Shown here: piece after piece, positions 37,573 to 42,609 of the stretch
How positions within the stretch are numbered: the stretch's first letter is position 1
Layout: each line of letters starts with the position of its first letter
Made by a program: the position numbers and the translations under genes
The notes under the pieces: model-generated
The model's input: only the letters and a program-made list of their open reading frames with translations
Told to the model about the DNA's origin: nothing
Databases searched by the model: none
Assembly: GCF_021390675.1 (NCBI RefSeq)
Contig: NZ_JAJEJV010000004.1
Span: 3,348,001 to 3,412,000 of the forward strand
Source: Dyella sp. 2HG41-7
GTDB lineage: Bacteria > Pseudomonadota > Gammaproteobacteria > Xanthomonadales > Rhodanobacteraceae
Reading direction: 5' to 3'
DNA: 64,000 nt

Positions 37573-38529
37573 TTAGTCGATGTAGAGCGAGCTCACCGAT
37601 TCGCCGTACGCGATGCGGCGGATCGTTTCGGCCAGCAATTCGGCTACCGAAAGCTGACGAATACGCGCACAAGCCTTGGCCTCTTCGCGCAGCGGCAGGG
37701 TATTGGTGACCACCAGCTGGTCGAGCTGGGAATTCTCGATATTGCGGATCGCCGCGCCGGACAGCACCGGATGCACGCAGTAAGCGACGACCTTGCGCGC
37801 GCCGCGCTCTTTCAGCGCAGCCGCCGCGGCGCACAGCGTGCCGGCGGTGTCGACGATGTCGTCCACCATCACGCAAGTTTTGCCCTCGACGTCGCCGATG
37901 ATGTTCATCACCGTGGCCACGTTGGCCTTCGGGCGGCGCTTGTCGATGATGGCCAGATCGGCATCGTCCAGGCGCTTGGCGATCGCGCGAGCGCGCACCA
38001 CGCCGCCGACGTCCGGACTGACCACGATCAGATCGTCCATGCTGTAGTTGCGCCAGATGTCCGCCAGCAGGATCGGCGAAGCATAGACGTTGTCGACCGG
38101 CACGTCGAAGAAGCCCTGGATCTGGTCGGCATGCAAGTCGACCGTCAGCACGCGATCCACGCCGGAGGTGCCGATCAAGCGCGCCACCATCTTGGCCGTA
38201 ATCGGCACGCGCGCGGAGCGCGGGCGGCGATCCTGGCGGGCATAACCGAAGTATGGGATGACCGCGGTCACGCTGGCCGCGGACGCGCGCTTGAGCGCAT
38301 CGACCAAGGTGAGCAATTCGAACAGATTCTCCGCGCTCGGCGCGCCGGTAGGCTGCAGCACGAACACTTCCTGGCGGCGGACGTTCTCTTCGATCTCGAT
38401 CTGCACTTCGCCGTCGCTGAACTTGCCGACCAAGGCTTTGCCGAGCGGCACGCCCAGGCGATGAGCGACGTCTTCGGCGAGTGCACGGTGCGCATTGCCG
38501 GTAAACAGCATCGGGCTGGACGTATCCAC
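37573..38529 (-). CDS. prs: Ribose-phosphate pyrophosphokinase
   Basis: 318-aa enzyme making PRPP from ribose 5-phosphate and ATP for nucleotide, His and Trp synthesis. It has [18 protein letters not shown], the [15 protein letters not shown] region and the PRPP-binding loop [14 protein letters not shown]. The likely start is a GTG at 38529, 8 nt after GAGGAAA; an ATG six codons in is an alternative. It is transcribed after tRNA-Gln and before rplY. Confidence 0.96.
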
Positions 38530-38714: not shown

Positions 38715-38791
38715 TGGCTGGGGCGGTAGGATTCGAACCTACGCATGCGGGAATCAAAATCCCGTGCCTTAACCAGCTTGGCGACGCCCCA
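38715..38791 (-). tRNA. tRNA-Gln (TTG)
   Basis: 77 nt with encoded CCA. Acceptor TGGGGCG/CGCCCCA, anticodon loop TTTTGAT giving anticodon TTG, T loop GTTCGAATC. Located between the ispE-like gene and prs. Confidence 0.96.
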
Positions 38792-38822: not shown

Positions 38823-40202
38823 TTACGCCGCTGCCGCGTGGCGCGCGAGCGCCCGATGCAACGGCGACAACCCGACGCCCTCGACCACGTACGCCGAGAA
38901 CGATGTCGGACAACGCCGAACAACCGCTTCAGCCCGCTCAGGCGTGGGCGTTTCCAGAAAAACGCAACCGCCTGCACCGGAAAGCCGTGCGTGACCATGG
39001 TCTCCCAGCCAATCCAACGCCACAGCAACCCGAGGGTATCGCGCGCGGACGAATGGTTCGAAGACGTTCTCCAGCGTTTCGCCGGAAGCAAAGGATGAAA
39101 TTGTGGCTGGCGACGCAATGCGTGTCAATTCAGTTGTTTGAAAAAAATCGTCGACCGACACGTGTTCGTGCGGGTCGAGCACCACGTACCAGCGCCGCGG
39201 CAACTTGATCGGTCGGGCGCGATCGCCCGCACCCGTCACCCACGCCGAACGGCCGCGCACGAACAACGCGGTTTCCGCATCGAGCTCGCTTGCCAAATCG
39301 GCCACCTCGTCCACATCCAAACCGCATCGCCAAAGATGATTCAGCGCAAGCATCGCGGCGGCGGCGTGCGAAGCGCGACTGCCCAAACCGTCGATCGCGG
39401 GAACACGCGTTTCAATCTCGATTTCTGCACCTTCACGCACATTCGCGCGACTGCGCAGCAATTCGGCTGCGCGGATCAGCAAATCGTTGGAACCGTCCTG
39501 CACGCCCGCAACGCAATGGATGCGCCCGTCATCGCGTGCACGCACGCGAAGTTCGTCGCTCCAATCCAACAGGCGAAAGACGGTTTGCCATTGCCGCTGG
39601 CCGTCATCGTTCTCATCAAGCATGCGCAAGAATAGATTGAGCTTTATCGGCGCCGGCCAAATGCTCCATTCGCTTGCATCGGGCGACGAAAGCACACGCG
39701 ACATGAACACGCGCAACGTGTCGGGAAACCCGTGTTCTTGATCGCGCTCGCGCGCATAGGCGTAAGCGGGATCGTTCTTATCGACAATCGAAAAACCATG
39801 CTTGGCGTAGAACGGCGCATTCCACGACACATCGGCAAGCGTGCCCAGGTCGACGCGCCGATAACCCGCCGCGCGCGCCCAGGCGCAGGCATGTTCAAGC
39901 AACGCCGTACCGATGCCGCGACGGTGGAACGCCGGCAACACATCGATCTCGGCGATGCCGATGATCTGTCCATCTTGCTCTGCATCGAGCCAAATGAATC
40001 CCACTGGCTCGTCGCTTTCGTCATCGATCGCGACCCAAACGAAACCGCGCTGAATTTCTTCCGCAAGCTGCTCCGGCGGAATGGATACGGACGAATAAAA
40101 ACGCCACGCCGCATGTCCGCGAAACATTTCCACGGCTGCGCGCTCGATGGTGCAAAGGGCGTCTACGTGCGATGTAGTGGCCCGCTCAATTCGAAATGTC
40201 AT
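38823..40202 (-). CDS. GNAT acetyltransferase fused to a degenerate IspE-like kinase
   Basis: 459 aa in one uninterrupted frame. Residues 1-170 are a GNAT domain with the acetyl-CoA motif VLPAFHRRGIGTA (88-100) and WNAPFYAKHGF. Residues 178-459 align by eye with IspE (4-diphosphocytidyl-2C-methyl-D-erythritol kinase): WPAPIKLNLFL with Lys187 (E. coli Lys10), LALNHLWRCGL, RLSGAGGCVF and GLSPLHRAL. Key kinase features are missing: the ATP loop GLGGGSS reads GLGSRAS (272-278), the substrate motif DGYHELQT reads DGQRQWQT (200-207), and catalytic Asp141 of E. coli corresponds to Glu310 (GADVP reads DAETA). The locus (lolB, here, tRNA-Gln, prs) is the usual ispE site. Kinase activity is doubtful. 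An internal ATG at 39704 has no visible ribosome binding site. Confidence 0.85.
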   Translation of the reverse strand: MTFRIERATTSHVDALCTIERAAVEMFRGHAAWRFYSSVSIPPEQLAEEIQRGFVWVAIDDESDEPVGFIWLDAEQDGQIIGIAEIDVLPAFHRRGIGTALLEHACAWARAAGYRRVDLGTLADVSWNAPFYAKHGFSIVDKNDPAYAYARERDQEHGFPDTLRVFMSRVLSSPDASEWSIWPAPIKLNLFLRMLDENDDGQRQWQTVFRLLDWSDELRVRARDDGRIHCVAGVQDGSNDLLIRAAELLRSRANVREGAEIEIETRVPAIDGLGSRASHAAAAMLALNHLWRCGLDVDEVADLASELDAETALFVRGRSAWVTGAGDRARPIKLPRRWYVVLDPHEHVSVDDFFQTTELTRIASPATISSFASGETLENVFEPFVRARYPRVAVALDWLGDHGHARLSGAGGCVFLETPTPERAEAVVRRCPTSFSAYVVEGVGLSPLHRALARHAAAA

Positions 40203-40258: not shown

Positions 40259-40873
40259 TTATTGCAAGCTCCACGATTGAATCGCGAGCCGCACTTTGTA
40301 CGGCGGTTTCTCGGCAAACACTTTCAAGGGCAGCGGCGGTTGACGCGTCGTATCCCACGCGAGATAGCTCACCGTCCAGCCATCCTGCTGCAAAACGGAA
40401 GGCAAACGATCGTCACCAAAACTCAGGTCGGCTTGTGCGCCGTGTGCCCGCAATCCGAGCACCCATGCGCGCAATTCATCGAGCGGTACTTCCCAATGCA
40501 GCGCGCGCCGCATAAGCGCCTCCGCGTCCGCTCCGCGCTGAGGACCGCCATCGACGCCGTCTAGCTCGGCGCCGTCCGGGCCGCCGCTCAAGCGATAGCT
40601 CTTGCCGGATACGGGCGCGCGAAAAATGAGTTCATAGCTGGCGCCGTTCTGCGTCCACGTGAAGTCGCTGCCCGGCACGCCCTCTTTGCCGTCGGAGACT
40701 GCGAGCCGACCCTGCAAAACCCAGTGATCGGCGTTGGCCAGTTGCTGTTCGCGCGCAGCCTGTTGCGATAACGACGCGGCATCTCCCTGGTTGCGCACGA
40801 GCTGCTTCGGCGCGCACGCAGTCAATAGCAGCAGCGGTGCGAGCGCTGCGATAACGCGGAATCGTGAGGTCAT
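40259..40873 (-). CDS. lolB: Outer membrane lipoprotein LolB
   Basis: 204-aa lipoprotein receptor that accepts lipoproteins from LolA and inserts them in the outer membrane. The ATG at 40873 gives a signal peptide with lipobox LLTAC (Cys20); its ATGA overlap with the preceding TPR gene supports it. The mature part has WVLQGRLAVSDGKEG and the closing PPYKVRLAIQSWSL, typical of LolB. It precedes the IspE-like gene as in E. coli. Confidence 0.93.
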   Translation of the reverse strand: MTSRFRVIAALAPLLLLTACAPKQLVRNQGDAASLSQQAAREQQLANADHWVLQGRLAVSDGKEGVPGSDFTWTQNGASYELIFRAPVSGKSYRLSGGPDGAELDGVDGGPQRGADAEALMRRALHWEVPLDELRAWVLGLRAHGAQADLSFGDDRLPSVLQQDGWTVSYLAWDTTRQPPLPLKVFAEKPPYKVRLAIQSWSLQ

Positions 40874-42609
40874 GGCTCTAGGCGCTTCAAAGTTTGTTGC
40901 AGGTTGGCGTTGTGCGGATCGATGCGACGCACTTGATCGAAGACTTGCTGCGCCTGATCGCGATCGCCCTGCTTCCACAGCACTTCGCCGAAGTGGACGC
41001 CGACGTCGGCGTCTTTGCCGGTTTGCCACGCGTTGCGCAGCACGGCCACCGCTTCGTTTAGATTTCCGAGCCGATATTGCAGCCAACCCCACGAGTCGGC
41101 GATCGACGGATCGTTTGGCTTGGCCGCACGTGCGGTCGCAATCAACTTCTCCGCTTCGGCAAGATCGCGATCGGCATCGGCCAGCGTGAATCCCAGCGCA
41201 TTGCTCGCATCGATATCGTTCGGCTTGACCTGCAGCAGATGACGGAAATCCGCAACGGCGAGATCGATTTTGCCGATTTCCGCATACGCCAAACCACGCC
41301 CGTACAACAGATCCGGATCGTCCGGCGCCACCTGCAGCGCATGACTGAATGCATCAGTGGCTTCCGGGTAACGCTTGTCGCGCAGATAGAGATCGGCATC
41401 CACTTCGTACGCGCGGCGCAGTTGTGCGGGCTGATCCAGGTAATCGGTCTGCATCTCGGCCAATTGCTGATGCGCTTCGGCGCTGCGGCCGAGGTCCTGC
41501 AGCAAAATCGCGCTACGCAAGTCGGCATCGAAAGCGTGATCGTCGTCGTCCGGCACCTGGTCGTACCACTTCAGCGCCTCGTCCTTTTTGCCCAGCACTT
41601 CGGCCAATTGACCGAGCAAATACGCACTGGACGTGCGCACATCATCGGGTGCTTGCGCGAGTTGCTGATAGACCTGGCCAAGCGACTTGTTGTCTTTGGC
41701 ATTGGCCGCCAGCGCAGCGCGCAAGGCGTAGGTCTGCGCGTTCTGCGGCCCTTTCTCCAACAGATGCGCGGCTTGCGAATATTGACCGCTTTGACCCAGC
41801 AACGAGGCGTAGGTCAATCGCAATCCGATGTTGGTGGGATCTTTCACTTGCGCCTGGCGCAACAGCGTCAGGCCGCCCGTTCGATCGCCGTTATTGAGCT
41901 TCAGCTGCGCCGCCCACGCATAGGTTTCGGCGGTGCCGAAACGCTTCAACGCGCCATCGGCGATTTGTCCGGCGTAGGCGTGGCGGCCCAACTGTTCGCC
42001 GAGTTCGCTCATGGCGAGCCACGCTTTGGGATCGGCCGGCAGATGCTCCGGCGTGGCCAGCGATTCGAGCAGATTGGCGGCGAGCGCCGGATCGCGACTG
42101 CCGATCAACACGCGCCCGAACATGCGCCAGGCATCCTTGTCGCCGCTCGTGATAAGCAGGGAAAGCTGGCGACGTGCTTCGTCAGTCTGCCCCTGCTCCA
42201 CCGCCAACTGGGCTCGGGCTTGGGCCAGCTGCGCTGGCGTCGCGCCCAGCGCCTGCCAGCGGTCAATGGCGCGTCTGGCGGCCTCCGGATCGTGGATGGC
42301 GATGCCCAAGGCGGCGGCCTTTCCGGCCACATCCGGGTCGCTCGAAAGCGCCATGGCTTTGTCATAGGCCTGGGACGCGGCCTTGAGATCGGCCCCGGAC
42401 AGCGCCAACTCTCCTGCCATCAGCTGGGCCAGCAGGTCGTGATCGGCATCCGGGGTGGCTACGGTTACCGTTGCCAGCGGCTGTTGCGACGCTTTAGATG
42501 GAGGGCTCGACCGATGCGGTACCGCGGCACATCCGACCATGCCAAGCACGACCAACCCTACAGCTACAAACTGCCGCACTTGCTTGAACTTGCCCGTCCC
42601 GCTCAGCAC
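40870..42609 (-). CDS. TPR-repeat lipoprotein
   Basis: 579 aa starting with GTG at 42609 after GGAGGAATAGT. The N-terminus has a lipoprotein signal with Cys27 (GMVGC). The rest is a string of about a dozen tetratricopeptide-like helices, for example PDDPDLLYGRGLAYAEIGKIDLAVADF and a final WGWLQYRLGNLNEAVAVLRNAW. Probably a periplasmic or outer-membrane scaffold; partner unknown. It is divergent from hemA and overlaps lolB by 4 nt. Confidence 0.85.
   Translation of the reverse strand: MLSGTGKFKQVRQFVAVGLVVLGMVGCAAVPHRSSPPSKASQQPLATVTVATPDADHDLLAQLMAGELALSGADLKAASQAYDKAMALSSDPDVAGKAAALGIAIHDPEAARRAIDRWQALGATPAQLAQARAQLAVEQGQTDEARRQLSLLITSGDKDAWRMFGRVLIGSRDPALAANLLESLATPEHLPADPKAWLAMSELGEQLGRHAYAGQIADGALKRFGTAETYAWAAQLKLNNGDRTGGLTLLRQAQVKDPTNIGLRLTYASLLGQSGQYSQAAHLLEKGPQNAQTYALRAALAANAKDNKSLGQVYQQLAQAPDDVRTSSAYLLGQLAEVLGKKDEALKWYDQVPDDDDHAFDADLRSAILLQDLGRSAEAHQQLAEMQTDYLDQPAQLRRAYEVDADLYLRDKRYPEATDAFSHALQVAPDDPDLLYGRGLAYAEIGKIDLAVADFRHLLQVKPNDIDASNALGFTLADADRDLAEAEKLIATARAAKPNDPSIADSWGWLQYRLGNLNEAVAVLRNAWQTGKDADVGVHFGEVLWKQGDRDQAQQVFDQVRRIDPHNANLQQTLKRLEP

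What the first reader, a model, noticed from the sequence alone, without database searches (positions are those of the whole stretch)
38823..40202. Acetyltransferase fused to an IspE that has lost kinase hallmarks
The usual ispE site encodes a single 459-aa protein. Its first 170 residues are a complete GNAT domain. Its IspE half keeps Lys187 (E. coli Lys10) and the overall fold signatures. The ATP loop GLGGGSS has become GLGSRAS, the substrate motif GYHEL has become GQRQW, and the catalytic Asp (E. coli Asp141) has become Glu310. In the MEP pathway IspE is normally essential. Either the cell has another IspE, uses the mevalonate route, or the fused domain gained a new role such as binding a nucleotide for the acetyltransferase.
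Basis: partly seen in the sequence, partly recalled or inferred. Interest (0 to 1): 0.8.

Follow-up and report, generated by a model that had tools for sequence, protein, structure and literature searches.

The report
Dead isoprenoid kinase tail on acetyltransferase
In this soil bacterium an acetyltransferase still carries the worn-out remains of an enzyme from a pathway its lineage has replaced, and the part of that gene kept longest appears to be a promoter for the next gene.

Summary
The 459-aa ORF (38823..40202, minus) at the ispE site is a GNAT acetyltransferase fused to an IspE half with changed ATP loop, CDP-ME motif and catalytic Asp. It is not an assembly error. The fusion occurs in 16 of 25 other genera sampled; 44 of 44 fused relatives taken to lie outside this genus keep all 11 active-site residues checked. 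In this genus (16 genomes) the MEP pathway is broken: ispG 0, ispF 0, ispH 1 (a probable MAG), dxr over cut-off 1. HMG-CoA reductase is in 16. The IspE half has eroded: three near-intact, seven with 4-7 of 11 residues, one broken, five deleted. GNAT is kept in 16. One Rhodanobacter MAG repeats the pattern. The half is relaxed but not neutral (dN/dS about 0.2-0.3 in the seven). Inside it lies a conserved TTGACA-N17-(C/G)ACAAT promoter, apparently for tRNA-Gln-prs. In the five deletion genomes this is the only ispE DNA detected (BLAST in four, by eye in the fifth). Best reading: a probably dead domain kept for structure, plus a promoter kept for the neighbour. Catalysis and transcription are untested.

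The parts
38823..40202 (-). fused ORF, GNAT + IspE-like half, 459 aa
   Evidence: orthologous fusions
39687..40202 (-). GNAT acetyltransferase half (residues 1-172), kept in 16 of 16 genomes of the genus
   Evidence: 8 of 406 reference-invariant cells changed in seven eroded lineages
38823..39671 (-). IspE-like half (residues 178-459 and stop), active site eroded
   Evidence: dN/dS
39642..39644 (-). Lys187 (E. coli Lys10), retained
39588..39602 (-). substrate motif GQRQW in place of GYHEL (residues 201-205)
39369..39389 (-). ATP loop GLGSRAS in place of GLGGGSS (residues 272-278)
39273..39275 (-). Glu310 in place of catalytic Asp (E. coli Asp141)
39100..39128 (-). sigma-70-like promoter TTGACA-N17-CACAAT inside the IspE half, inferred to drive tRNA-Gln and prs
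38715..38791 (-). tRNA-Gln (ttg), starts 31 bp after the ORF's stop
37573..38529 (-). prs-like gene (ribose-phosphate diphosphokinase), downstream
   Evidence: ORF; same gene order in E. coli; name by order and recall, not by a family search
40259..41092 (-). lolB-like gene, upstream
   Evidence: ORF; same gene order in E. coli; name by order and recall, not by a family search

Best explanation
The gene descends from a GNAT-IspE fusion that is common in this bacterial family. The genus carries mevalonate genes (shown) and lacks late MEP genes (shown), so making CDP-ME phosphate became pointless (inferred). Selection on the kinase active site lapsed, and seven lineages lost parts of it in different ways (shown). 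The acetyltransferase stayed under strong selection (shown). The IspE half of the window protein is therefore most likely catalytically dead (inferred). It is kept for two reasons. First, it serves as a structural or partner domain of the acetyltransferase, because its frame is open and still under protein-level selection (selection shown, role inferred). Second, its DNA holds a promoter, most likely that of the downstream tRNA-Gln-prs transcript (conservation shown, transcription inferred). In one subclade the GNAT came to do without the domain, and all detectable ispE DNA except the promoter was deleted (shown).
For: Pathway, in 16 genomes of the genus: ispG 0, ispF 0, ispH 1, in G150, 4% contaminated, dxr over cut-off 1, below cut-off 6, none 9, HMG-CoA reductase 16, HMG-CoA synthase-like gene 16. 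In the own genome one operon holds mvaD, a phosphomevalonate kinase-like gene, HMGR fused to mevalonate kinase, and idi. In 147 genomes of the family, 130 have an IspE over cut-off: 9 of the 26 with HMGR and, by subtraction, all 121 without; 5 of those 9 are eroded. Erosion: all 11 residues kept in 44 of 44 references, 4-7 of 11 in seven lineages. Reference-invariant cells changed in the seven: GNAT 8/406, active site 39/77, rest of kinase N part 148/476, C part 31/301; independent case L050: 0/58, 6/11, 26/68, 8/43. Selection: tip dN/dS of kinase N part 0.21 (0.19-0.27) against 0.12 in references; GNAT 0.08 against 0.11. Promoter: GAATTGAC and ACAATTTC invariant in 59 of 59 fused genes, using rare codons (ACA is 7% of Thr codons elsewhere, used 55/55 and 54/55); in the five deletion genomes it is the only ispE-like DNA detected (BLAST in four; read-out in G080).
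Against: The window protein and six of seven other eroded proteins scanned still pass the TIGR00154 cut-off. Among the seven eroded lineages, Lys10 and Ser109 are kept in 7 and Asp141 in 4, so total loss of activity is less sure for some of them than for the window. Clade G038/G149/G150 keeps 10-11 of 11 residues with unrelaxed dN/dS (0.09) although ispF and ispG are missing there too; that does not fit one ancestral loss followed by uniform decay. For the C part the methods disagree: no relaxation by tip fit of 380-452 (0.14 against 0.15), some by codon model of 331-452 (0.240 against 0.115-0.187). HMG-CoA synthase and phosphomevalonate kinase score below their curated cut-offs, and the HMGR profile is named 'degradative'. 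ispD was not tested. The promoter scan alone finds 1 site against 0.8 expected in shuffles. No structure model was obtained.
Confidence: 0.74

Rival explanations
1. The kinase half is simply a young pseudogene tail: no role at all, open only because too little time has passed.
For: In G017 it is broken and in five genomes deleted. Active-site residues change most. The codon model shows some relaxation of the C part too.
Against: If each tip mixed normal and neutral phases so as to give its dN/dS, about 7.6 stops would be expected in the kinase N part over the seven open lineages (12.7 if N-part rates are applied to the whole half); none is seen. The open genes are a selected sample, since two further lineages broke or lost the half, and this was not formally corrected for. 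The C part beyond the promoter keeps low dN/dS (0.14).
Confidence: 0.22
2. The half is still an enzyme, acting on another substrate or with a rebuilt active site.
For: Lys10 is kept in 10 of 10 fused genomes of the genus, Asp141 in 4 of 7 eroded ones, and the C-terminal glycine motif RLSGSGGC has at most one change in each of the seven. The altered loop GLGSRAS resembles that of other GHMP kinases (recalled).
Against: All seven eroded lineages differ in ATP loop and in substrate motif, although some single residues recur (Asp at His26 in three, Gln at Tyr25 in three). Tyr25 and His26 are lost in seven of seven. A shared new activity should leave a shared new motif.
Confidence: 0.06
3. It is a ligand-binding regulatory domain for the acetyltransferase (pseudokinase sensor).
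For: Lys187 and the C-terminal glycine motif persist and protein-level selection persists. Where the half is lost, the GNAT has charged residues at positions that are small in the fused genomes of the genus (A18D, A38R, P43K, A111E, A112K), as if an interface were uncovered.
Against: No ligand is known; the half is dispensable in five genomes. Of the charged residues, Glu111 also occurs in 9 of 24 fused references, Arg38 in 3 and Asp18 in 1. The interface was not modelled.
Confidence: 0.2

Closest known systems
IspE, CDP-ME kinase (E. coli 1oj4; TIGR00154)
   Same: Homologous over residues 181-452; same site between lolB- and prs-like genes; Lys10 and most of the C-terminal glycine motif kept
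   Different: Tyr25, His26, three loop residues and Asp141 changed; IspF, IspG and IspH not found in the genome; N-terminal GNAT
GNAT acetyltransferase PA2271 (9cr5)
   Same: Residues 2-171 align over nearly the whole 174-aa chain
   Different: Here it carries an IspE tail; natural substrate unknown
Partial MEP pathways kept beside mevalonate in Listeria (review PMC13001223; section 15 part 1 read)
   Same: Mevalonate supplies isoprenoids while MEP fragments persist
   Different: In Listeria the fragment ends at MEcDP and is thought to have a non-isoprenoid use; here IspF is not found and the IspE active site is eroded
Pseudoenzymes: pseudokinases of other folds (recalled)
   Same: Catalytic residues lost, purifying selection on the protein; fold presumed kept
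   Different: GHMP family, arising inside a fusion after pathway replacement, with several stages within one genus

Membership tests
IspE (CDP-ME kinase) | Match to curated IspE profile over cut-off | tested here: met
   169.5 bits against 138.7
IspE (CDP-ME kinase) | Intact ATP loop GLGGGSS | tested here: not met
   GLGSRAS; the checked loop residues intact in 44 of 44 references
IspE (CDP-ME kinase) | CDP-ME binding Tyr25 and His26 (roles recalled) | tested here: not met
   Gln202 and Arg203
IspE (CDP-ME kinase) | Catalytic Asp141 and Lys10 (roles recalled) | tested here: not met
   Lys187 kept, Asp replaced by Glu310
IspE (CDP-ME kinase) | Works within a MEP pathway | tested here: not met
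   dxr, ispF, ispG, ispH not found in G000; ispD not tested
IspE (CDP-ME kinase) | Phosphorylates CDP-ME | not testable with these tools
   needs an assay
GNAT acetyltransferase | GNAT profile over gathering score and conserved core | tested here: met
   63.6 bits against 20.7; 57 of 58 reference-invariant sites kept in the window protein
Pseudogene | Frame broken or evolving neutrally | tested here: not met
   Open frame; dN/dS 0.30 (0.22-0.43) on the window's own tip, kinase N part
Pseudoenzyme | Catalytic residues lost, protein under selection | tested here: met
Pseudoenzyme | Fold retained and no activity | not testable with these tools
   structure service busy on 13 attempts; no assay
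Sigma-70 promoter inside a gene | -35/-10 hexamers with 17 bp spacing, conserved at DNA level | tested here: met
Sigma-70 promoter inside a gene | Transcription starts there | not testable with these tools
   needs 5' end mapping

The most novel reading that the evidence does not exclude
A metabolic kinase stranded by pathway replacement was turned into a non-catalytic partner domain of the acetyltransferase it was already fused to, perhaps a sensor that binds a phosphorylated ligand through the kept Lys187 and glycine motif. One genus preserves the stages, from intact-looking kinase through eroded kinase to a bare promoter scar.
Probability: 0.3. Interest if true: 0.72.

Novelty: new variant of a known kind. 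Interest (0 to 1): 0.6.

Why it matters
The fate of an IspE domain after mevalonate takes over can be followed here within one genus, with three near-intact copies, seven eroded, one broken and five deleted, and one apparent independent repeat in Rhodanobacter. It gives a testable case of how an enzyme domain becomes a pseudoenzyme inside a fusion. It also suggests that a gene relic can be kept for a neighbour's promoter. Practically, eight of nine relatives scanned pass the IspE equivalog cut-off although six of those eight are eroded, so profile annotation alone would credit such genomes with a CDP-ME kinase.

Tried and rejected
Assembly error: rejected, the fused frame is open in 10 of 16 genomes of the genus and matched in 51 of the 80 loci kept (94 were found; the other 29 listed match the GNAT half only). 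A second IspE: none found in this assembly (completeness 99.99%). Fusion gained together with kinase loss: rejected, fused relatives have intact motifs. RNA element in the 3' part of the ORF: Rfam gave only the tRNA and one sub-threshold hit. Literature: ten searches over open-licence PMC papers; judged from titles and abstract starts, none of the listed papers describes a GNAT-IspE fusion, mevalonate replacement in Dyella or Rhodanobacter, or a tRNA-Gln-prs promoter in ispE. Papers beyond the lists (one search listed 15 of 55, 10 of 96, 10 of 11) were not seen. Search listings only, except PMC13001223 (abstract, passages, section 15 part 1) and PMC10663253 (passages). Structure prediction could not be run: busy.

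The other 44 fused loci were taken as outside the genus because their identity to the window is 57-63% against 66-71% within it; no tool assigned their genus. L050 was kept apart as the independent case. The rate sets used 24 of the 44 references, one search used 12.

Confidence lowered from 0.76 to 0.74, the pseudogene rival raised from 0.20 to 0.22.

Full report
What is there. The ORF at 38823..40202 (minus) encodes 459 aa. It lies between a lolB-like gene and tRNA-Gln/prs, the order seen in E. coli apart from the tRNA (lolB and prs named by order and recall). Residues 1-172 are a GNAT acetyltransferase; 181-452 are IspE-like from end to end.

The fusion is old and normally intact. A scan for relatives kept 80 of 94 loci; 51 of the 80 match the whole fused protein, from Dyella, Rhodanobacter, Luteibacter and Frateuria and a few contigs under other names. 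I fetched 29 ispE loci covering the 25 other genera of the family sample, one or two each; L140 gave no ORF by my pattern, its genus being covered by L164. By motif and reading of the context, the fusion is present in 16 of 25 other genera and absent in 9 (g12 judged by reading because the pattern missed it). Of 44 fused references taken to lie outside the genus, 44 keep all 11 active-site residues checked.

The genus has changed isoprenoid pathway. In 16 genomes of the window's genus: ispG 0, ispF 0, ispH 1 (G150, a probable MAG with 4% contamination), dxr 1 over cut-off, 6 below it and 9 none, dxs 16. Dxs also feeds thiamin and pyridoxal phosphate synthesis (recalled). These five profiles rang in the E. 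coli control each time. HMG-CoA reductase is in 16 of 16. In the own genome an operon beside hopanoid genes (HpnH, I, J, K) carries diphosphomevalonate decarboxylase, a phosphomevalonate kinase-like gene, HMG-CoA reductase fused to mevalonate kinase, and IPP isomerase. An HMG-CoA synthase-like gene lies on another contig of the own genome, and one is found in 16 of 16. The phosphomevalonate kinase (77 bits) and HMG-CoA synthase (151 bits) are below their curated cut-offs and the best HMGR profile is named degradative, so a complete mevalonate route is inferred. ispD was not tested. Only one IspE over cut-off is in the genome; the other TIGR00154 hits are a homoserine kinase-like gene (by neighbours and recall) and the mevalonate kinase part.

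Across the family. In 147 genomes, 26 have HMG-CoA reductase and 130 have an IspE over cut-off. Nine of the 26 are among the 130, so by subtraction all 121 without HMGR have IspE over cut-off and 17 with HMGR do not. Of the nine, five (G000, G066, G104, G125, G135) have eroded active sites and four (G038, G039, G136, G043) keep the motifs. These counts are not corrected for kinship; the losses lie in at least four genera (the window's, that of G024, that of G130, that of G137).

Stages of decay. GNAT is kept in 16 of 16 genomes; the full fused frame is open in 10; G017's IspE half is broken; in five it is deleted right after the GNAT. On a GNAT tree the five form one clade (100/99) with the window as nearest relative at moderate support (81/93), so the deletion may be one event. 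Seven open lineages keep 4-7 of 11 residues, three keep 10-11. Erosion is uneven: in the seven, Tyr25 and His26 are lost in all, Lys10 and Ser109 kept in all, Asp141 kept in four. At sites invariant in 44 references, changes in the seven are 8 of 406 cells in GNAT, 39 of 77 in the active site, 148 of 476 in the rest of the kinase N part and 31 of 301 in the C part; in the three near-intact 3/174, 2/33, 15/204 and 4/129. The eleven sites were chosen from the finding's motifs and recalled E. coli residues; the C part includes the promoter codons.

Selection. Codon-model dN/dS for the whole IspE half is 0.274 in the seven, against 0.101, 0.138 and 0.072 in three sets of eight references and 0.126 in the three near-intact; for GNAT 0.078 against 0.048, 0.098 and 0.051; for the C part 331-452 0.240 against 0.183, 0.187 and 0.115. 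Least-squares tip estimates: kinase N part 0.21 (0.19-0.27) against 0.12; C part 380-452 0.14 (0.09-0.23) against 0.15; the window's own N part 0.30 (0.22-0.43). Synonymous divergence is near saturation for some rows, so values are rough. If each tip were a mix of normal and neutral phases, about 7.6 stops would be expected in the N part over the seven; none is present. Survivorship bias applies, because two other lineages broke or lost the half. The half is thus relaxed, mainly around the active site, but not free; whether the C part is relaxed at all depends on the method.

A promoter inside the gene. tRNA-Gln starts 31 bp after the stop, leaving little room for a promoter outside the ORF. 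A scan finds one site, TTGACA-N17-CACAAT at 39128..39100 minus; by itself that is no more than chance (1 against 0.8 in shuffles). Conservation is the evidence. GAATTGAC and ACAATTTC are invariant in 59 of 59 fused genes, with codons that are rare elsewhere in these genes. Synonymous divergence dips there in all three sets scanned. The pattern is found in 27 of 28 readable loci across the family, fused or not; the miss is L158. It is present in 16 of 16 genomes of the genus. In the five deletion genomes 118-159 bp remain between the GNAT stop and tRNA-Gln; BLAST at E 1e-3 finds a 15-50 bp promoter stretch in four and nothing in G080, where the -35 and -10 are nevertheless readable. Transcription is not shown.

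Mechanism proposed. Mevalonate made the kinase dispensable; the GNAT kept the frame alive; the IspE fold was kept as a partner of the GNAT; the promoter was kept for prs. Where the half was lost, the GNAT has charged residues at positions that are small in the ten fused genomes of the genus (A18D, A38R, P43K, A111E, A112K, among 13 clade-specific columns of 172). This would fit an uncovered interface, but the clade's stem is long, and Glu111 (9 of 24), Arg38 (3 of 24) and Asp18 (1 of 24) also occur in fused references.

Open problem. Either the late MEP genes were lost several times and recently there, or intact IspE has a use outside the pathway.

Noticed in passing
L120:8716-11085 (+), own genome contig C4: HMG-CoA reductase and mevalonate kinase are fused in one 789-aa protein, in a mevalonate operon beside hopanoid (hpn) genes; in the 26 family genomes with HMGR the open frame is 755-957 aa, which would fit the same fusion (not tested).
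   Followed up: partly
window 39100-39128 (-) and ispE of 24 of 25 other genera sampled: A sigma-70-like promoter sits inside ispE across the family, apparently for tRNA-Gln-prs.
   Followed up: yes
L104, L105, L108 (G149, G038, G150): Near-intact IspE under normal constraint although ispF and ispG are missing (ispH only in G150); dxr is over cut-off in G038, split in two frames in G149, not found in G150.
   Followed up: partly
L050 / L134 (Rhodanobacter FW106_bin.11, G137): Apparently independent erosion of the fused IspE (Lys10 to Arg, Asp141 to His) in a genome with HMGR; promoter readable.
   Followed up: partly
window protein residues 381-450, in this genus: Synonymous divergence stays low from the promoter to the end of the ORF in the seven eroded lineages (pS 0.34-0.45 against 0.66 in the GNAT half), mostly lower than in two reference sets beyond residue 400; cause unknown.
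   Followed up: no
L008 (CAJCJD010000242.1): A contig filed as Candidatus Eremiobacteraeota carries a typical fused gene of this Dyella-like genus and shares a 200-base stretch with G150; the label is probably wrong.
   Followed up: no
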